From NCBI GenBank assembly GCA_030041305.1, contig JASHOC010000228.1, positions 1 through 64,000 of the forward strand: 64,000 nucleotides of DNA. The letters are read 5' to 3'. A program made the translations under genes and the position numbers. The number at the start of each line of letters is the position of its first letter. Position 1 is the stretch's first letter. Under the pieces are notes generated by a model. The model did no database searches. It had not been told where the DNA came from and was given only the letters and a program-made list of their open reading frames with translations. This DNA is from Acidobacteriaceae bacterium (lineage in GTDB: Bacteria; Acidobacteriota; Terriglobia; Terriglobales; Acidobacteriaceae). This document shows positions 9,237 through 48,801 of this stretch, in pieces.

Positions 9237-12200
9237 ATGCACCCGCGCCATCTTGCCGTCTCCTCCGCGTTGATATTGGCTCTCAGTTGCAGCGCGCTGG
9301 CGTGGCCGCAGACCCAGCCCGCCGATCGCCTGCTTTCGCCGATCATCGCCTCCCGGCGCACCCTTATCGCCCCGGTGCATCCCCTCGCGGTCAGCCGCAA
9401 CGACATCGGCCCCGTCAACGGAAATCAGGTGTTCCATCGGATGGTGATGCTTCTCGAGCGCAGCGCTACCCAGCAGGCTGAGCTCACCCAGCTGCTCCAG
9501 GAACAGCAGGACCCAAAGTCGCCCGAATACCATCACTGGCTCAGTCCCGCTGCATTCGGCCGGCGCTTCGGCCCCAGCGACAATGACCTTGCGAAAATCC
9601 TCGGCTGGCTCCAGTCTCAGGGCTTTTCCGTTGAAAACCCCTCCAATGGCCGACAGTTTCTCTTCTTCACCGGAACCAGTGCGCAGGTCGAAGCCGCCTT
9701 CCAGACGCAGATGCACCGTTACTCGGTCAACGGCAAGACCTACATCGCCAACGCAACGCCGGCCAGCATTCCCTCAGCGCTTGCGCCCGATGTCTCAACC
9801 CTTGCCAGCCTGAACAACTTCAAGCTGTTGCTGCCCCAGTCCTACCCGGCCGCCAAGCCGCAAATCCTCATCGGCCAGGACATCTTCACCGGCCCCGCCG
9901 ACCTTGACGCCATCTACGACGCCGCGCCCCTCCAGACCGCCGGCATCGAGGGCCAGGGCGAATCCATTGCTCTGATTGAAGAGAGCAACATCAACCTCCA
10001 GGACCTCACCGATTTCCGCAACGTCACCGGGCTGCCCGCGGCCGATGTCAATGTCATCGTGAATGGACCGGATCCCGGCCTGCTGGCCGGCGATTTCGAG
10101 GAGTTCGAAGCTATCTCCGACATCGAGTACGCCGGCGCCATGGCGCCTGACGCCACCCTTAATCTCATTGTCTCCGCCTCCACAGAGTTCGTGCAGGGCA
10201 TCGATCTTTCCACGGTCTACGCCGTCGACTACGATGTCTCCCCCCTCACCTCGATGAGTTACGGAGGCTGCGAAACTCTCGAAGATGCCTATTCGCCCGG
10301 CGTCACTCAGCTCTTTGGCGACGCCTATGAACAAGGGGCCGCGGAGGGCATCAGCATGTTTGTTTCCAGCGGCGATAACGGCGGCGACGATTGCTGGGAT
10401 TTCAGCGCCGGCTACGGCGTCAACGCCATCGGCGACTCGCCCTGGAACGTGTCCGCGGGCGGCACCGAATTTATCATGCCCGATCCCTACGTTTATTTTC
10501 CCCCCTCCGCCAACTACACCGCCTCCGGCTACATCCCCGAAAGCACCTGGAACGACTACGAGAATCCCTACGACGGCCGTCCCCTGGCCGGCAATGGCGG
10601 CGTTTCAATCGACTTCACCAAACCAAGCTGGCAAACCGGCCCCGGCGTGCCCCAGGACGGTCAGCGCGATACTCCCGACGTATCGCTGCTGGCCGGCGAC
10701 AATCTGGCGTACCTCACCTGTGAAAGCGACCTTGGATTCGACTGCGCCAACGGCATCGGCGCAGGCGTGATCGGCACCTCACTGGCTTCGCCCAATTGGG
10801 CCGCCATCCAGGCTCTCATTGACCAAAAAAATAATCTGCTGGGCGGCGCCGGAAACCCCAATCCCACTTACTATCAGCTCGCCGCCGGCGCCAACTCGCC
10901 CTTCCACGACATCACTGTCGGCGACACCAAGGTTCCCGACCCCAACGGCGAATTAGTCGGTTACGCCGCCGGCCCCGGCTACGATCTCGCCACCGGCCTC
11001 GGCTCCGTCGACGTGAACAAGCTGGCCACGAGCTGGATGCCGCCCACCGGCAGCGGCGCCGTCACCGTGACTCTCACCACCAGCACCACTGCCATCACCC
11101 ACGGCGACCCGCTCAGCGCCTCCATTACTGTCGGCTCGACCGGCGCCACCACGCCCTCCGGCGACGTCGTCCTCCTGGCGGGAAGCGAGGCCGTTGCGCT
11201 GCTCACCCTCCAGAACGGAACGCAATCGTTCACCTTTGGCCCCGCCACCGGCGTGGAATTGCCAGGCGGCGCTTACAACCTCACCGCCCGTTACGAAGGC
11301 GACGCCAACTTTGCCCCCGCAACCTCCAGCGGCATCGAGCTCAGCGTCAATCCCGAACAAACCACCACCGCGGGTTCGAGCAATGCCTTAGCACCCACCC
11401 TTTACGGCACGCCGGTGGTTCTCACTGCTGAAACCACCGGCAACAACTCGGGCGCCGCCTACGCCGTTCCCGGCACGTATTCATTTATCGAAAAGGGCGT
11501 CACCCTCGGCAACGCCACCATCGCTCGCACGGGAGAAAGCTTTGCCTATCTCGACCTCGGAGCGACCGCCAATCTCACCCTGAGCGGCGCCCAAACCCTC
11601 GCCGCCGGAACCCACAGCATCGCAGCAGACTCGCCGCCGATTTCCACCAGCTTTCTCCCCAGCGCTTCCGCCCCCATCGCGGTCATCGTCGTTCCCAGCA
11701 CTGTCCTGGTCGCTCTCGTTCCCGACCACACCACGCCGGCCGTGAATTCGACGGTCAATCTCCACGCCAGCGTCATCAACCTATGGGGCGAAAACAGCAA
11801 CAGCTACGCCGCCGTCCCGGTCACCGGCAAGGTGGATTTTTACGACTTCAGCGCTAACCCGGCCGTCAAGCTCGGAACCGTCACGCTGTCCGTCACACCC
11901 GACTCCTCCGGCGCGTTCGACGTGACTTTGCCTTACCAGTTCGCCACCGCCGGCGTTCACGTCCTGCAGGCCGAATACGATGGCGACGCGAACGACATCC
12001 CCAACTCCTCCGGCGCAGTCAATGTCGATGTCGGCGGAGCCGCCGCAAAAGCTTCGACCTCCACCAAGATCAGCACCTCGCTGGTCGGCGGAGCCTTCGC
12101 CCTCGCGCAGCAGAGCGTCAACATCGTCGCCACCATCGCTGGTGACTCCGCAGGCGCTACGCCAACCGGCTCCGTCACCTTCACTGACGTTTCCGCCAAC

Positions 12201-12971
12201 AACGGCGCCGGCGCCACCATTGGCACAGCCCCGCTCGCCACCAACGGAACCGCTACGCTCACCATCGATACCCTGGCCGCCGGCCGCCATTACATCATCG
12301 CCAGTTACCCGGGCGACGCCAACTTCGCGCCCTCGGCTTCGCAATCGATCGAAGCCATCATCGGCGACTTCACCCTCGCCGCTGCGCCTTCGAGCGCCAC
12401 GGTCATCGCCGGCCAGGCTTCCTCGGCGATCGCCCTCACCTATGCCGGCTCCGCCGACTTCACCACCTTTGCCTCAGGCTCGGTGTTCGACTCCGGCGTC
12501 ACGCTCGCCTGCTCTGGCCTGCCCACCGGCGCCGCGTGCAGCTTTTCGAGCGGCGTCATTACACCCACCGCCGGCTCCAACGGCGCCACCTCCGGCACGG
12601 CCACGGTCACCATCTTCACCACCGGACCCACCGTCACCAAGGCCTCGCTCGCTCATCCGCCCGAACCTCGCACTCACAAACTTTCCGGCGCCGCCGCGCC
12701 CTTCACTCTCGCCGGCTTGCTCGCTCTAGGACTACCGTTCGCCTTCCGCCGCAGGCTCTTCACCACGCTGCTCGGCCTGGTGCTCGTCGCCTCGGTCTTC
12801 TCCTTGAATGGATGCGGCAGCGGAGGAGGCGGCTACACGATCTCCAACCCCGGCACGGCCGCCGGAACCTCGAGCGTGACCATCACCGCGACCGTCAACG
12901 GCGGCCCGGCTTACGGCACGCTCTCCCGCACGGCCACCGTCGCGCTCACCGTCAACTCCGCCGGCCAATAA
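9237..12971 (+). CDS. Secreted S53 (sedolisin/kumamolisin) peptidase with Ig-like repeats and C-terminal hydrophobic module
   Basis: A 1,244-residue exported serine-carboxyl peptidase. After a signal peptide (about 1-25) the activation prodomain covers about 40-200 (PEYHHWLSPAAFGRRFGPS). In the catalytic domain Glu291 and Asp295 sit in EAISDIE, the oxyanion Asp380 in VSSGDNGG and the nucleophile Ser515 in GTSLASP, so all four key residues are present. Residues about 610-1120 are several Ig-like repeats with DANFAP-type linkers (YEGDANFAPATSS, YPGDANFAPSASQ). The last 90 residues form a distinct module: hydrophobic helix, FRRRLF, second hydrophobic helix, LNGCGSGGGG, then a beta tail. These peptidases act at acidic pH outside the cell, suiting an acidophilic decomposer. 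Confidence 0.93.
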   Translation: MHPRHLAVSSALILALSCSALAWPQTQPADRLLSPIIASRRTLIAPVHPLAVSRNDIGPVNGNQVFHRMVMLLERSATQQAELTQLLQEQQDPKSPEYHHWLSPAAFGRRFGPSDNDLAKILGWLQSQGFSVENPSNGRQFLFFTGTSAQVEAAFQTQMHRYSVNGKTYIANATPASIPSALAPDVSTLASLNNFKLLLPQSYPAAKPQILIGQDIFTGPADLDAIYDAAPLQTAGIEGQGESIALIEESNINLQDLTDFRNVTGLPAADVNVIVNGPDPGLLAGDFEEFEAISDIEYAGAMAPDATLNLIVSASTEFVQGIDLSTVYAVDYDVSPLTSMSYGGCETLEDAYSPGVTQLFGDAYEQGAAEGISMFVSSGDNGGDDCWDFSAGYGVNAIGDSPWNVSAGGTEFIMPDPYVYFPPSANYTASGYIPESTWNDYENPYDGRPLAGNGGVSIDFTKPSWQTGPGVPQDGQRDTPDVSLLAGDNLAYLTCESDLGFDCANGIGAGVIGTSLASPNWAAIQALIDQKNNLLGGAGNPNPTYYQLAAGANSPFHDITVGDTKVPDPNGELVGYAAGPGYDLATGLGSVDVNKLATSWMPPTGSGAVTVTLTTSTTAITHGDPLSASITVGSTGATTPSGDVVLLAGSEAVALLTLQNGTQSFTFGPATGVELPGGAYNLTARYEGDANFAPATSSGIELSVNPEQTTTAGSSNALAPTLYGTPVVLTAETTGNNSGAAYAVPGTYSFIEKGVTLGNATIARTGESFAYLDLGATANLTLSGAQTLAAGTHSIAADSPPISTSFLPSASAPIAVIVVPSTVLVALVPDHTTPAVNSTVNLHASVINLWGENSNSYAAVPVTGKVDFYDFSANPAVKLGTVTLSVTPDSSGAFDVTLPYQFATAGVHVLQAEYDGDANDIPNSSGAVNVDVGGAAAKASTSTKISTSLVGGAFALAQQSVNIVATIAGDSAGATPTGSVTFTDVSANNGAGATIGTAPLATNGTATLTIDTLAAGRHYIIASYPGDANFAPSASQSIEAIIGDFTLAAAPSSATVIAGQASSAIALTYAGSADFTTFASGSVFDSGVTLACSGLPTGAACSFSSGVITPTAGSNGATSGTATVTIFTTGPTVTKASLAHPPEPRTHKLSGAAAPFTLAGLLALGLPFAFRRRLFTTLLGLVLVASVFSLNGCGSGGGGYTISNPGTAAGTSSVTITATVNGGPAYGTLSRTATVALTVNSAGQ

Positions 12972-13291: not shown

Positions 13292-14497
13292 CTATCTCGG
13301 CTCCCCCACCCTTACCAGCAAAATATCGTGGCTGGCAATCTCCAGCGGCATGTTCTCGGTCAGGGTCATCTCTTTCCCCGTCCACAGGTCCTTCGCCTGC
13401 TGCGCCCCGTGCAGTCCCAGCCGCGTCAGACTCAGGTGGAAAGGATGGCTTGAGTACCGGTCGCTTCCTGCATTCAGCACGGCGAGCGCCATGGCCCCGC
13501 CCGCAAGCCGCCGCGTCCACACTTCCACTTCTCCGTCCGCATAGGCCCGCGTGGCCTCTTGGCCAAGCCGGTCCTGGTCAATCGCAATCACATCCCGGTT
13601 GGTCAAAATGGCCAGAATCTCCGGCTTCATGTGCGGCAAATCGTTGCCTGCCAGCAACGGCGCGGCCAGCATCGCCCACATCGAAAAATGACTCCGATTT
13701 TCCGCCAGCGTCAACTTGCCGTTGCCCACCTCCAGCATGTCCGGATCATTCCAGTAGCCCGGCCCGGCATATTTCGCCAGTCCCGCCTGCTGCTCCAGAA
13801 TCGCGTATACCCGATCCCAGTTCGGCTGGATGTCTCCGGTCGTCCGCCACAGGTTCGCGCCCACCTGGGGCCCCCACTCCCACACCGCGTCCCATCCGTA
13901 CTGGCACAGCGAGTACACGATCGGCCGCCCCGTCGCCTTCAGCGCCTGGTCCATCTTGGTGTACGCGGCCTCCATCAGCCGCATCTGCTCCGCACCATCG
14001 TTCGGCGCCTGCGCAGCCATTACCGCCTGGCGAAAACTGCACAAATCGTATTTCAAATAATCGATGCCCCACTGGGCGTACAGCGCCGCATCCTGCTGCT
14101 CGTGCCCCAGGGAGGCCGCGTACCCCGCGCAGGTCTTCGGCCCCGGCGACGAGTAAATCCCCAGCTTCAACCCTTTGGAATGGACGTAATCCGCCAGCGC
14201 CTTCATGTCCGGGAACTTCGAGTTGGTGTGCAGCACGCCGTTCGCGTCGCGCTCGCCCTCCCAGGTGTCGTCGATGTTCACGTACACATACCCTGCGTCC
14301 TTCATCCCCGTAGAAACCAGCGCATCGGCGGCGCCGCGCACGTCCTGATCGGTCACGTTGCGGTGAAAATAATTCCAACTGTTCCATCCCATCGGCGGCG
14401 TCAAAGCCACGTTCTGCGGCGAGCCGGACCTTTGGCCGGCGGCGAGCAGCAAACTCAAAGCACTTACGACAAGCGGCAAAGCTGCGCCGAAACGCAT
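13292..14497 (-). CDS. Secreted alpha-galactosidase, glycoside hydrolase family 27
   Basis: GH27 enzymes remove terminal alpha-galactosyl residues with retention of configuration. The start at 14497 is fixed by a perfect AGGAGGG (14506-14512) 8 bases before the ATG and by the signal peptide that follows (LPLVVSALSLLLAAG). The 401-residue product shows the family hallmarks TPPMGWNSWNYF near the N-terminus, VNIDDTWE, the nucleophile Asp151 in YLKYDLC and the acid/base Asp222 in WRTTGD. A C-terminal antiparallel beta domain follows. It lies about 170 bases downstream of a TonB-dependent receptor on the same strand, so enzyme and receptor may serve the same galactose-containing glycan or oligosaccharide. 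Confidence 0.93.
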   Translation of the reverse strand: MRFGAALPLVVSALSLLLAAGQRSGSPQNVALTPPMGWNSWNYFHRNVTDQDVRGAADALVSTGMKDAGYVYVNIDDTWEGERDANGVLHTNSKFPDMKALADYVHSKGLKLGIYSSPGPKTCAGYAASLGHEQQDAALYAQWGIDYLKYDLCSFRQAVMAAQAPNDGAEQMRLMEAAYTKMDQALKATGRPIVYSLCQYGWDAVWEWGPQVGANLWRTTGDIQPNWDRVYAILEQQAGLAKYAGPGYWNDPDMLEVGNGKLTLAENRSHFSMWAMLAAPLLAGNDLPHMKPEILAILTNRDVIAIDQDRLGQEATRAYADGEVEVWTRRLAGGAMALAVLNAGSDRYSSHPFHLSLTRLGLHGAQQAKDLWTGKEMTLTENMPLEIASHDILLVRVGEPR

Positions 14498-14669
14498 CGC
14501 GAAATCCCTCCTGAAAGCCTTTTCAAGGAATACTACGCTCCCCTGCCGCAACCCGGCAATCGCATCGCCCTGTTCTGACTTTCGGCGCAAAATGCGGCAG
14601 GGAGCCCGAAGGCTCCCTGCGGCGGCGATTGCGACTGGAATGGAGGCGGAAGCGGGTTCCGCGATTGGG

Positions 14670-46215: not shown

Positions 46216-48801
46216 TTGAATTGGTCCTGGGTGTTTAACTGCGTGCCACGGTTCTTTTCGTTTGTCGGATTGTCTTGGAAAACTGGCTGCCGGGTGCGAT
46301 GGGCATGGCTGGCGGCGTGGACGGTTGCGGCGGGGCTGGCGCAGGCGCAAATTCTTCCCGATCTCATTACGCAGCAGATCGACGCGGCGCAAGTGCATGC
46401 GTTGCCCAACCATCATCCGCTTTGGGCGAACGCGAGCAACAGCCTGGGCGCAGCGCCCGCCGGGCTCGAGTTGAATCAGTTGACGCTGGTGCTGGCGCGT
46501 CGGCCCGAACAAGAGCGGGCGTTCCAACAACTATTGGCTGATCAGGAGAACCCCGCTTCGCCGGAATTTCATCGCTGGCTGACTCCCGATGAGGTGGGTG
46601 AGCGCTTCGGGCTGTCGGAGCATGATCTGGACGCAATTACAGCGTGGCTTGCGTCGCGGGGAATGGACGTGAACTGGGTGGCCCCCAGTCGACTGTTTAT
46701 TGGTTTCGGTGGCGCGGCGGCGCAGGTGGGGCAGGCGTTTCACACCGAAATACGTTCGTACCGGGTGGATGGCGTAACACGCCTGGGGCCAGCTTCAGAC
46801 CCGATGATTCCCCAGGCGCTGATGCCGGCCATCCGTGCGGTGCGCGGTTTGTACACGATCGAGGACCGGCCGGCGCATCATTCTCTGGTGAAGATCGAAG
46901 ATCAAGCGGCTTCGCCGCAGGTGACCGACACCGCCGGCGATCACCTGATTGCGCCCCAGGATTTCCGGACGATCTACGACGCCGCTACCGGCTTCGACGG
47001 CAGCGGAGAAACCATCGGGATTGTCGGCTGGTCGCGCGTCAGTTTTGCCGATCTGAATAACTTCCGCGTACGCACCGGGGCCGGCTTTCCCAATCCTGCC
47101 CAGATCGTGCCCAATGCGTATGGTGGCGTGGATCCGGGGCCGGCGTACACCGCGGCGCCCACGACAAACGGCGCCCTCGGCGGGCAAGAGGAAGCAACTC
47201 TGGACGTCGAGCGCGCAGGAAGCGTTGCGCCGGGCGCGAACCTGTTGCTGGTGGTTTCTTCGCCGGCTGGAAACAGCGACGGCATCGGGGCGGATGCGCA
47301 ATACCTGGTGCAATCGACCCCCGCGCCGGCGCAGGTGATCAACATTGGCTTTGGCGACTGCGAATCGGACGCCGGCCCGGCGGGGGTGGCGTATTGGGAT
47401 GCTTTGTTTGAGCAGGCCGCGGCCGAGGGGATTTCGGTGATTGTCTCCTCGGGCGACGCCGGAGCCGCGGGCTGCGATGCGGCGTTCGCCACCCCGCCCG
47501 CAAACCCGTTGCCCAACAGCCCCAATTACATTTGTTCCTCCAGCTACGCGACCTGCGTCGGTGGAACCGAGTTCAACGACGCGGACGATCCCTCGGCGTA
47601 CTGGACTTCGACCAATGGCGCGGCCTTGGCCTCAGCCCTCGGCTACATTCCCGAAGGCGGCTGGAACGAGCCGCTGAGTGCGAACGCCACTCCGCAGGCG
47701 GCGGCGTCAGAAGGTGGCGTGAGCCGCTACATCGGCACACCGTTGTGGCAAGTTGGGACGGCGGGCATCCCCTCCGCGAGATCGGGCCGGTATACGCCCG
47801 ACGTTTCGTTTTCCGCCTCTTGCCACGACGCTTACTTCGGTTGCCTGGCGGCCGGTGGAGGCAGTTGCGAGGTAAACTCCTCCGGCAGCTTCTCGTTTGA
47901 GGCATTTTGCGGAACCTCGGCGGCGGCTCCGGGCTTGGCGGGCGTGGCCGCGCTGCTCGACGAGAAGCTGGGCGGACCGCAAGGCAATCTCAACCAGGGT
48001 ATTTACGAGACGGCGGCCAACGCGCCCGCAGCTTTTCACGACGTGACGGTTGAGACGAGCGGCGTGCGTTCGTGCAGCGCCCGTACGCCGAGCATGTGCA
48101 ACAACAGCATCCCCTCGCGCGACAGTTTGAGCGGCGGTCAGGCAGGATATATGGTGGGTCCGGGCTACGACGAGGTCACCGGGCTCGGGTCGCTGGATGT
48201 GGCGAGTTTCCTGGCCAGTTACGGAGAGTGCCCGGCGGCGAAAACGGCGCTTGCGCCCGGTTTCGCGATCAGCGGCGCGACGGCGACGATTGCGGCCGGC
48301 GCGGCTACCGGCAATACGATGACCATTACGGTTACGCCGGTGGGCGGCTTTCAGGGGAGCGTGATGCTGACGGCGCACGTTGAGAGTCCGGCGGGCGGAC
48401 AGGATCCGCCCACGGTCACCTTCCAGTCGGCGAATCCGCTCGCGATCACGGGGCCAGATCCGGTTACAGCGGCCTTGACGGTCTCGACCACCGCGAGGAC
48501 CACCGGCGCAATCGAATGGGCGCCGCGACCCCGAGGCCGCTGGGACGCAACAGCCGGCGCTGCTCTGGCTTGCTTTGCACTGTTCTGGATTCCGTTGAAG
48601 CGCCGGAGATGGCGCATGATGCTGGCAGCCGTAGCGTTATTCGCGGGGCTGGCGGGCGGGCCGGTTGCGTGCACGGGCTCGCTGAGGAGCATGGAAAGCG
48701 TCGCGGGTTCCGGCACCTCGGCCGGAACCTATACGATCGCGATCAGGGGAAGTTCGGGCTCGACCACGGCGTCGGCGGCTGTATTTCTCGTCGTGGAGTA
48801 A
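46216..48801 (+). CDS. Secreted S53 (sedolisin-like) peptidase with C-terminal hydrophobic module
   Basis: An 861-residue exported peptidase starting at TTG 46216 (in-frame GTGs soon after are alternatives) with a hydrophobic leader WAWLAAWTVAAGLAQAQ. The prodomain (about 60-210, FHRWLTPDEVGERFGLSEHD) precedes the catalytic domain with Glu and Asp in EEATLDVERAG, Asp in VSSGDAGAAGC and Ser in FCGTSAAAPG, so the S53 set is complete. In place of the long Ig region of the other copy there is a single beta stretch (about 680-760) and then the same type of C-terminal module: hydrophobic helix, PLKRRRWR, second hydrophobic helix, VACTGS, beta tail. It converges with the GH106 gene. Confidence 0.9.
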   Translation: MNWSWVFNCVPRFFSFVGLSWKTGCRVRWAWLAAWTVAAGLAQAQILPDLITQQIDAAQVHALPNHHPLWANASNSLGAAPAGLELNQLTLVLARRPEQERAFQQLLADQENPASPEFHRWLTPDEVGERFGLSEHDLDAITAWLASRGMDVNWVAPSRLFIGFGGAAAQVGQAFHTEIRSYRVDGVTRLGPASDPMIPQALMPAIRAVRGLYTIEDRPAHHSLVKIEDQAASPQVTDTAGDHLIAPQDFRTIYDAATGFDGSGETIGIVGWSRVSFADLNNFRVRTGAGFPNPAQIVPNAYGGVDPGPAYTAAPTTNGALGGQEEATLDVERAGSVAPGANLLLVVSSPAGNSDGIGADAQYLVQSTPAPAQVINIGFGDCESDAGPAGVAYWDALFEQAAAEGISVIVSSGDAGAAGCDAAFATPPANPLPNSPNYICSSSYATCVGGTEFNDADDPSAYWTSTNGAALASALGYIPEGGWNEPLSANATPQAAASEGGVSRYIGTPLWQVGTAGIPSARSGRYTPDVSFSASCHDAYFGCLAAGGGSCEVNSSGSFSFEAFCGTSAAAPGLAGVAALLDEKLGGPQGNLNQGIYETAANAPAAFHDVTVETSGVRSCSARTPSMCNNSIPSRDSLSGGQAGYMVGPGYDEVTGLGSLDVASFLASYGECPAAKTALAPGFAISGATATIAAGAATGNTMTITVTPVGGFQGSVMLTAHVESPAGGQDPPTVTFQSANPLAITGPDPVTAALTVSTTARTTGAIEWAPRPRGRWDATAGAALACFALFWIPLKRRRWRMMLAAVALFAGLAGGPVACTGSLRSMESVAGSGTSAGTYTIAIRGSSGSTTASAAVFLVVE

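What the first reader, a model, noticed from the sequence alone, without database searches (positions are those of the whole stretch)
12640..12968. Shared C-terminal module (helix, Arg-rich turn, helix, lipobox-like Cys, beta tail) on two S53 peptidases
The S53 proteins ending at 12971 and 48801 differ in their middle regions but end alike: a hydrophobic stretch, RRR or KRRR, a second hydrophobic stretch, L-x-x-C with Gly/Ser after it (LNGCGSGGG and PVACTGS), then a tail containing GT-AGT and V/I-T-I repeats. It is unlike PEP-CTERM or LPXTG. A Cys after two C-terminal helices could be a lipidation or processing site, or a surface-anchoring signal specific to this lineage. The second copy lies at about 48520-48800.
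Basis: partly seen in the sequence, partly recalled or inferred. Interest (0 to 1): 0.66.

Follow-up and report, generated by a model that had tools for sequence, protein, structure and literature searches.

The report
Lipid-anchor hairpin splitting an Ig domain
Many secreted proteins of a soil-bacteria group end in an immunoglobulin-like domain that is interrupted by a membrane hairpin and a lipoprotein-type cysteine, probably a way to tie the protein to the cell by its tail; the tail is catalogued by NCBI, but how it works has not been tested.

Summary
Both S53 proteins end in the same module: helix, Arg cluster, helix, [G/A]-Cys, spacer, two beta strands. It is already catalogued as NCBIfam NF058595 "lipo-invert putative C-terminal anchoring domain"; the held paper library has nothing under that name. 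At E 1e-10 it is found in 241 of 249 genomes sampled from the order, and rarely elsewhere. In 165 tails (162 distinct) the Cys is always present, residue -1 is Gly/Ala/Ser in 163, the Arg cluster has net charge +3 or more in 161, and Asp at +2 occurs in none.

What the catalogue name does not say: the module is inserted into an Ig-like domain. A profile made only from uninterrupted copies matches on both sides of the hairpin and breaks near position 70 of 97 in 150 of 165 tails. AlphaFold2 folds the two halves into one Ig sandwich.

Best reading: an internal lipoprotein signal peptide, turned round by the first helix. Lipidation and LspA cleavage would leave the last two strands as a lipid-tied clamp inside the Ig domain. 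Lipidation, cleavage and location are inferred.

The parts
9237..12971 (+). Copy 1: secreted S53-type protein, 1244 aa, with Big_3_5 Ig repeats and the module at its end
   Evidence: ORF; Pro-kuma_activ and four Big_3_5 stretches
12369..12626 (+). Copy 1: N-terminal half of the split Ig-like domain
   Evidence: profile of uninterrupted domains, E 1.9e-9, positions 1-87; AF2 pLDDT blocks 86-96, one block 57
12627..12692 (+). Copy 1: periplasmic linker before the first helix
   Evidence: sequence; low pLDDT
12693..12746 (+). Copy 1: first membrane helix (stop-transfer, inferred)
   Evidence: hydropathy 1.76 over 17 residues; not modelled as a helix
12747..12755 (+). Copy 1: Arg cluster RRR, cytoplasmic turn (inferred)
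12756..12812 (+). Copy 1: second membrane helix ending in SLNG, lipoprotein-like h- and c-region
   Evidence: hydropathy 2.43; 20 residues from last Arg to Cys
12813..12815 (+). Copy 1: invariant Cys codon (residue 1193), predicted lipidation site
   Evidence: only invariant column of 36 tails; 91 of 91
12852..12968 (+). Copy 1: C-terminal half (last two strands) of the split Ig-like domain
   Evidence: profile positions 64-97, E 2.1e-6; pLDDT blocks 90-95
46216..48801 (+). Copy 2: secreted S53-type protein, 861 aa (start codon uncertain), module at its end
   Evidence: ORF; Pro-kuma_activ and a Peptidase_S8 match
48259..48492 (+). Copy 2: N-terminal half of the split Ig-like domain
   Evidence: profile positions 1-72, E 3.6e-8; AF2 pLDDT blocks 89-98 apart from one of 72
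48553..48597 (+). Copy 2: first membrane helix
   Evidence: hydropathy 1.84; helix 98-112 of the model
48598..48615 (+). Copy 2: KRRRWR cluster
48616..48669 (+). Copy 2: second membrane helix ending in GGPVA
   Evidence: helix 116-135 of the model
48670..48672 (+). Copy 2: invariant Cys codon (residue 819)
48712..48798 (+). Copy 2: C-terminal half (last two strands) of the split Ig-like domain
   Evidence: profile positions 68-97, E 5.7e-9; strands 159-169 and 172-182, pLDDT blocks 83-97

Best explanation
The module is an internal lipoprotein signal peptide built into the last Ig-like domain of a secreted protein. Step 1 (inferred): the protein is exported by its N-terminal signal peptide until the first helix stops transfer. 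Step 2 (inferred from the charge pattern): the Arg cluster stays in the cytoplasm and the second helix re-enters the membrane pointing outward, so it presents n-region, h-region and [GAS]-Cys in the orientation of a lipoprotein signal peptide. Step 3 (inferred): Lgt puts a lipid on the Cys and LspA cuts before it. Step 4 (profile match shown; fold predicted by AlphaFold2): the 32-53 residues after the Cys are a spacer, often rich in Gly and Ser, plus the last two strands, which complete the Ig sandwich begun before the hairpin. If cut, these strands become a small lipoprotein that holds the passenger by strand pairing. Step 5 (open): to leave the inner membrane the first helix must also be removed, by a protease not identified here; otherwise the passenger stays in the inner membrane.
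For: Cys in 91 of 91 and 74 of 74 tails; -1 is Gly/Ala/Ser in 163 of 165, against 32% for these residues in the helix core of the 91 tails. Last Lys/Arg to Cys is 13-23 residues, loop net charge +3 or more in 161 of 165, Asp at +2 in 0 of 165. A screen of fetched DNA that did not ask for Cys found 179 frames ending in the last strands: 176 have a hairpin and a Cys, 0 a hairpin without Cys, 3 no hairpin. The other Cys in the outer parts of the domain are even in number in 156 of 165, which argues against an intradomain disulfide for the invariant Cys. One weak family match in another family of the phylum reads like an ordinary N-terminal lipoprotein start (helix, GC, GGGYSSGSSG; L137). LspA is in 32 of 32 genomes tested, once in the window's genome. 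Insertion at one place: 150 of 165. The AF2 model of copy 1 without the hairpin aligns to one uninterrupted Ig domain, 2ber 406-502, Z 11.3, rmsd 2.0, 97 aligned; copy 2 to 1wcq 404-502, Z 12.1, rmsd 2.0, 98 aligned.
Against: No experiment, and no signal-peptide predictor was on hand. Position -3 is looser than the textbook lipobox (recalled): Gln, Trp, Pro, Glu, His or Cys in 24 of 165, and a recalled PROSITE-like pattern fits only 74 of 91. The Cys counts come from sets gathered with profiles or patterns of this module. Cutting at Cys alone would leave the passenger on a two-helix stub, so the gain from the lipid is unclear without a second cut that I could not find. The halves pairing in AF2 shows they can make one domain, not that they stay together after a cut; hairpin confidence is low to moderate (pLDDT blocks about 49-78), and in copy 1 only the second helix is modelled.
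Confidence: 0.55

Rival explanations
1. Uncut two-helix anchor: the hairpin simply pins the Ig domain to the inner membrane, and the Cys is lipidated without cleavage or serves helix packing.
For: Two hydrophobic helices and a positive turn are enough for anchoring; nothing here shows cleavage.
Against: Does not explain Cys in all 165 tails with Gly/Ala/Ser before it in 163; Lgt substrates are normally cut by LspA (established knowledge, recalled).
Confidence: 0.27
2. C-terminal sorting signal: first helix plus Arg cluster is the working signal, like PEP-CTERM, GlyGly-CTERM or MYXO-CTERM, cut by an exosortase, rhombosortase or myxosortase; the second helix and tail are discarded.
For: Helix plus Arg order resembles those tripartite signals; 31 of 32 genomes have rhomboids; 11 of 15 carriers tested do have an exosortase match. 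Rhombosortase and myxosortase were not searched for.
Against: Exosortase is absent from the window's genome (98.7% complete) and 3 other carriers, 4 of 15 tested, and present in all 3 tested genomes of a genus with no module at E 1e-10. Discarding the tail would leave the Ig domain without its last two strands and the Cys unexplained. At E up to 1 NCBIfam finds only invert_tail in the two window proteins.
Confidence: 0.1
3. The Cys forms a disulfide or a dimer.
For: The Cys is outside the membrane in the proposed topology.
Against: Other Cys in the outer parts of the domain are already even in 156 of 165 tails; a disulfide does not call for Gly/Ala/Ser at -1. An intermolecular bond is not excluded.
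Confidence: 0.04
4. Chance hydrophobicity in two unrelated tails.
For: None found.
Against: 241 of 249 genomes sampled from the order; 76 of 76 family matches; shuffled C-terminal tails match the domain profile in 134 of 3300 cases against 165 of 165 real ones.
Confidence: 0.01

Closest known systems
NCBIfam NF058595 invert_tail (lipo-invert putative C-terminal anchoring domain)
   Same: Same domain by score: both window copies over cut-off; 76 of 76 tails at E 0.01 or better.
   Different: The 113-position model starts at the strand just before the hairpin, so most of the Ig half in front lies outside it. Only name and description are visible here; I cannot see its curators' notes, which may say more.
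MYXO-CTERM and myxosortase MrtX (PMC11980579, passages read)
   Same: C-terminal module on secreted proteins with invariant Cys, membrane helix and Arg cluster; that paper proposes lipidation of Cys and then cleavage.
   Different: There the order is Cys, helix, Arg and the protein ends in the Arg cluster, cleavage is after the Cys. Here it is helix, Arg, helix, Cys, then two strands at the end, so an LspA cut would be before the Cys.
Ordinary bacterial lipoproteins (type II signal peptide, Lgt/LspA; recalled)
   Same: Positive n-region, helix, [GAS]-Cys, flexible spacer.
   Different: Near the C-terminus, needs a preceding stop-transfer helix; looser -3.
GlyGly-CTERM/rhombosortase and PEP-CTERM/exosortase
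   Same: Helix plus Arg cluster on secreted proteins (tripartite signals, passages of PMC11980579).
   Different: No second helix, Cys or strands after the cluster in those (partly recalled); exosortase absent in 4 of 15 carriers here.
Ig-like domains split by an insertion, e.g. in RTX adhesins (PMC10865825, search listing and abstract start only)
   Same: A 'split Ig-like domain' is named there.
   Different: As the listing reads, the context is sugar-binding adhesin domains; here the insert is a membrane hairpin with a lipoprotein-type Cys.
GAIN/GPS domains and donor-strand complementation (recalled, not tested)
   Same: A beta-sandwich held together by a strand from a separate chain piece.
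   Different: Those use autoproteolysis or subunit exchange; here a signal peptidase is proposed.

Membership tests
NCBIfam NF058595 invert_tail | Score over curated cut-off 37 bits | tested here: met
   50.2 and 63.2 bits
NCBIfam NF058595 invert_tail | Lies at the C-terminus | tested here: met
   0-22 residues after the match in 91 tails
NCBIfam NF058595 invert_tail | Anchors the protein (the family's own 'putative') | not testable with these tools
   needs fractionation and mass spectrometry
Bacterial lipoprotein | Cys with Gly/Ala/Ser at -1 after a helix with positive n-region | tested here: met
   163 of 165; copy 1 LNG-C, copy 2 PVA-C
Bacterial lipoprotein | Leu/Val/Ile at -3 | tested here: inconclusive
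   Leu 56, Val 12, Ile 6 of 165; copy 1 Leu, copy 2 Pro
Bacterial lipoprotein | Signal peptide at the N-terminus of the precursor | tested here: not met
   the Cys is 32-53 residues from the C-terminus
Bacterial lipoprotein | Lipid on Cys | not testable with these tools
   no experiment
MYXO-CTERM | Cys, then helix, then C-terminal Arg cluster | tested here: not met
   order reversed in both copies; protein ends in a strand
PEP-CTERM/exosortase | Exosortase in the genome | tested here: not met
   0 matches in the window's genome, 98.7% complete
LPXTG/sortase | LPXTG motif before the helix | tested here: not met
   read by eye, no such motif in either tail
Ig-like beta sandwich | Whole domain fold from both halves | tested here: met
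   prediction only: Z 11.3 to 2ber, Z 12.1 to 1wcq

The most novel reading that the evidence does not exclude
LspA cuts an Ig-like domain in two inside its own fold, and the passenger is then held on the cell only by pairing with a lipid-tied two-strand clamp: a non-covalent, possibly releasable surface anchor used by most members of an acidobacterial order, with an internal lipoprotein signal peptide near the C-terminus of large secreted proteins.
Probability: 0.33. Interest if true: 0.87.

Novelty: new variant of a known kind. Interest (0 to 1): 0.62.

Why it matters
Acidobacteria are abundant in soil and how they hold enzymes on the cell is little studied (recalled). In the window's genome the module sits on S53 peptidases, a lectin-type protein, beta-propellers and Ig-repeat proteins, and most genomes of the order have several such proteins (1-17 found per positive genome, with at most 17 candidates scored), so one rule would place a whole set of exported proteins. 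If the cut is real, it shows that Lgt and LspA can act on an internal signal near a C-terminus, that lipoprotein predictors which look only at N-termini miss a class of lipoproteins, and that a split Ig domain can serve as a tag for tying proteins to a lipid.

Tried and rejected
Chance resemblance: rejected by counts. PEP-CTERM-like sorting: weakened by exosortase distribution. A second LspA dedicated to the module: not seen; one LspA in 30 of 32 genomes, two in G257 (a carrier) and in G001 (no match). Rhomboid as the cutter of the first helix: not testable, since rhomboids are in 31 of 32 genomes. Pro before the Arg cluster as a processing mark: only 63 of 165. PDB sequence search with the module profile: nothing useful, best E 0.012. 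Pfam: nothing over cut-off for the two split tails or for an uninterrupted pair of domains. PADLOC: nothing. N-terminal signal peptides: a crude scan finds 56 of 78 full frames in one set and 36 of 61 in the other, against 130 of 491 other frames (this control also contains the passengers of the second set); by eye several misses have a signal with a non-ATG start or an incomplete N-terminus.

Weak matches outside the own family: of 10, seven cover only model positions 73-113, the strands after the Cys. Read: L137 is a lipoprotein-like start; L138, L139, L140, L141 and L145 show ordinary uninterrupted Ig domains; L142 and L143 showed no module in the stretch printed; L144 was printed in a wrong frame and stays unread. 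So three of the 36 'over cut-off' genomes (G066, G169, G137) are not real modules.

Papers: the names lipo-invert, invert_tail and NF058595 give nothing in the held library; two searches returned no paper; listings show none on this module. The library lacks most subscription journals and preprints. PMC11980579 was read in passages; all other papers were seen as search listings and abstract starts only.

Full report
Check of the observation. The two proteins and their tails are as described, except that copy 2 has P-V-A-C and not L-x-x-C. Both score over the cut-off of NCBIfam NF058595.1, 'invert_tail: lipo-invert putative C-terminal anchoring domain' (50.2 and 63.2 bits, cut-off 37). So the tail is already catalogued as a putative anchor. 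The held library has no paper with those names, and the listings of related searches show none on such a module.

How common. The window's genome (6.4 Mb, 361 contigs) has 10 matches over the cut-off and one full module below it; all 11 show helix, Arg cluster, helix, Cys at the protein's end. In an even draw of 297 genomes of the phylum, with at most 14 candidates scored per genome, 36 have a match over the cut-off. These are 31 genomes of the window's own family, two of another family with one strong copy each (G216, G272), and three that are not real modules when read: a lipoprotein-like start and two ordinary Ig domains. The genomes without a match that are listed begin outside the own family; 235 more are not listed. 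In the window's order 241 of 249 sampled genomes have a match at E 1e-10 or better. A sample around a contig labelled Rhodanobacteraceae gave 244 of 249 at E 1e-8 and shares many places, so that genome lies in the same order and its GenBank label is doubtful. Around an Ideonella record (L198, a contig of over 1 Mb) only that genome of 250 has a match at E 1e-8, with one copy. Named carriers include Terriglobus albidus, Paracidobacterium acidisoli and Acidobacterium sp. S8.

Anatomy. I added 74 of the 80 loci of a named-genome scan: five loci lacked the motif used to place the tail and were not read, and L198 fell just under my hydropathy limit although it has YACGGG. Three tails are shared, so 162 are distinct. 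Over the 165: Cys in all; Gly/Ala/Ser at -1 in 163 (exceptions Thr and Asn); last Lys/Arg 13-23 residues before Cys; loop net charge +3 or more in 161; Asp at +2 in none; 32-53 residues after Cys. In a 36-tail alignment the Cys is the only invariant column. Because the sets were picked with a profile or relatives that contain the Cys, I also screened all closed frames in 1.5 Mb of held DNA (window included, mostly flanks of the same hits) for ends that look like the last strands, without asking for Cys: 179 frames, 176 with a hairpin and a Cys, none with a hairpin and no Cys, 3 without a hairpin (any Cys after the helix was accepted). Position -3 is loose: Leu in 56, and an uncommon residue (Gln, Trp, Pro, Glu, His, Cys) in 24 of 165.

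A split Ig domain. The window's genome also has an S53 protein on contig 37 that ends in an uninterrupted form of the same domain (L024 tail; prodomain on the same contig). From 36 full-length uninterrupted copies I built a profile of 97 positions with no split tail in it. It has a match in the stretch before the hairpin in 164 of 165 tails and in the stretch after the Cys in 165 of 165, at E below 1e-3 for single sequences; shuffled C-terminal tails match in 134 of 3300 (the stretch before the hairpin was not shuffled). In 150 of 165 the first match ends at positions 60-78 and the second starts at 53-74 and reaches position 94 or beyond: 79 of 91 and 71 of 74. Window copy 2 is among them; copy 1 is not by this strict rule, because its first match runs on to position 87, but its second match starts at 64. 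In the fitting tails 53-101 residues, median 68, lie between the halves. So the hairpin is an insertion at one place between strands.

Structure. AlphaFold2 with an alignment of 76 tails gives copy 1 mean pLDDT 78.3, pTM 0.64, and copy 2 mean 83.7, pTM 0.66. Blocks of both halves are mostly at 86-98 (single blocks at 57 and 72); the hairpin is lower (49-78), with two helices in copy 2 (residues 98-112, 116-135) and only the second helix in copy 1. Aligned to solved structures, copy 1 matches an uninterrupted Ig domain of a sialidase (2ber 406-502, Z 11.3, rmsd 2.0, 97 aligned, model range 1-196) and copy 2 the same domain in 1wcq (Z 12.1, rmsd 2.0, 98 aligned) and, tied with it, 8jmw (Z 12.2, rmsd 2.0, 102 aligned). 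The two halves together are therefore predicted to make one complete domain. A shared fold says nothing about function.

Why lipidation. The other Cys in the outer parts of the domain number 0, 2 or 4 in 156 of 165 tails, 1 or 3 in nine, which argues against a disulfide partner for the invariant Cys. The run from Arg cluster to spacer looks like the start of a lipoprotein, and one stray family match reads as exactly that (L137). LspA is present in 32 of 32 genomes tested, once in the window's genome. Exosortase is missing from the window's genome and three other carriers of 15, and present in all three tested genomes of a genus (g179) with no match at E 1e-10; four other order members without the module lack it too. 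At the laxer E 1e-8, one genome with the size and candidate count of a g179 member has one match (G866, 3.0e-9), so that genus may not be wholly without it.

Mechanism and its gaps. For the second helix to act as a lipoprotein signal peptide its Arg end must face the cytoplasm; the first helix provides that turn. This explains the odd order helix, Arg, helix, Cys. A cut before the Cys would separate the last two strands from the rest of the protein, yet they are part of its Ig domain, so they would be held by strand pairing. What happens to the first helix is open. If it stays, the protein is in the inner membrane; if a further protease removes it, the protein could travel on its lipid to the outer membrane or surface, as is proposed for MYXO-CTERM proteins through type II secretion (PMC11980579, passages). 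Lack of Asp at +2 fits outer-membrane sorting by the E. coli rule (recalled), but such spacers rarely have Asp anyway.

Passengers. In the window's genome they are S53 peptidases (three of the 11), a legume-lectin-type protein, NHL, SBBP and FG-GAP repeat proteins, and Ig or ASH repeat proteins: by their domains, exported proteins.

Verdict. Real, widespread in one order, catalogued by NCBI as a putative anchor, not found in the papers I could search. The insertion inside an Ig domain and the reading as an internal lipoprotein signal are what this work adds. The anchor role is likely; lipidation and cleavage are a testable proposal.

Noticed in passing
L236:3142-4206 (G257 contig 5): A weak exosortase-like gene (29.7 bits) lies about 480 bases after a gene with the module. 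Neighbours in other carriers were not surveyed.
   Followed up: partly
G356, G365, G391 (genus g179): Three of three sampled genomes of one genus have no match at E 1e-10 although 241 of 249 of the order do, and all three have exosortases: a possible comparison group. One may have a weak match at 3.0e-9 (G866).
   Followed up: partly
L205 / G516: A MAG labelled Rhodanobacteraceae in its record title groups with the acidobacterial order and has 9 copies of the module; the label is probably wrong.
   Followed up: partly
L198 / G515: An Ideonella MAG has one copy on a contig of over 1 Mb; 249 other sampled genomes of its order have none at E 1e-8: a possible transfer.
   Followed up: partly
L024 and L002 (window genome, contig 37): An S53 protein in the same genome ends in the uninterrupted form of the domain, so forms with and without the hairpin seem to coexist in one enzyme family.
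   Followed up: partly
window 13292-14590 (-): Next to copy 1: a protein with LTPPMGWNSWNYF, by recall an alpha-galactosidase of the GH27 kind; not searched.
   Followed up: no
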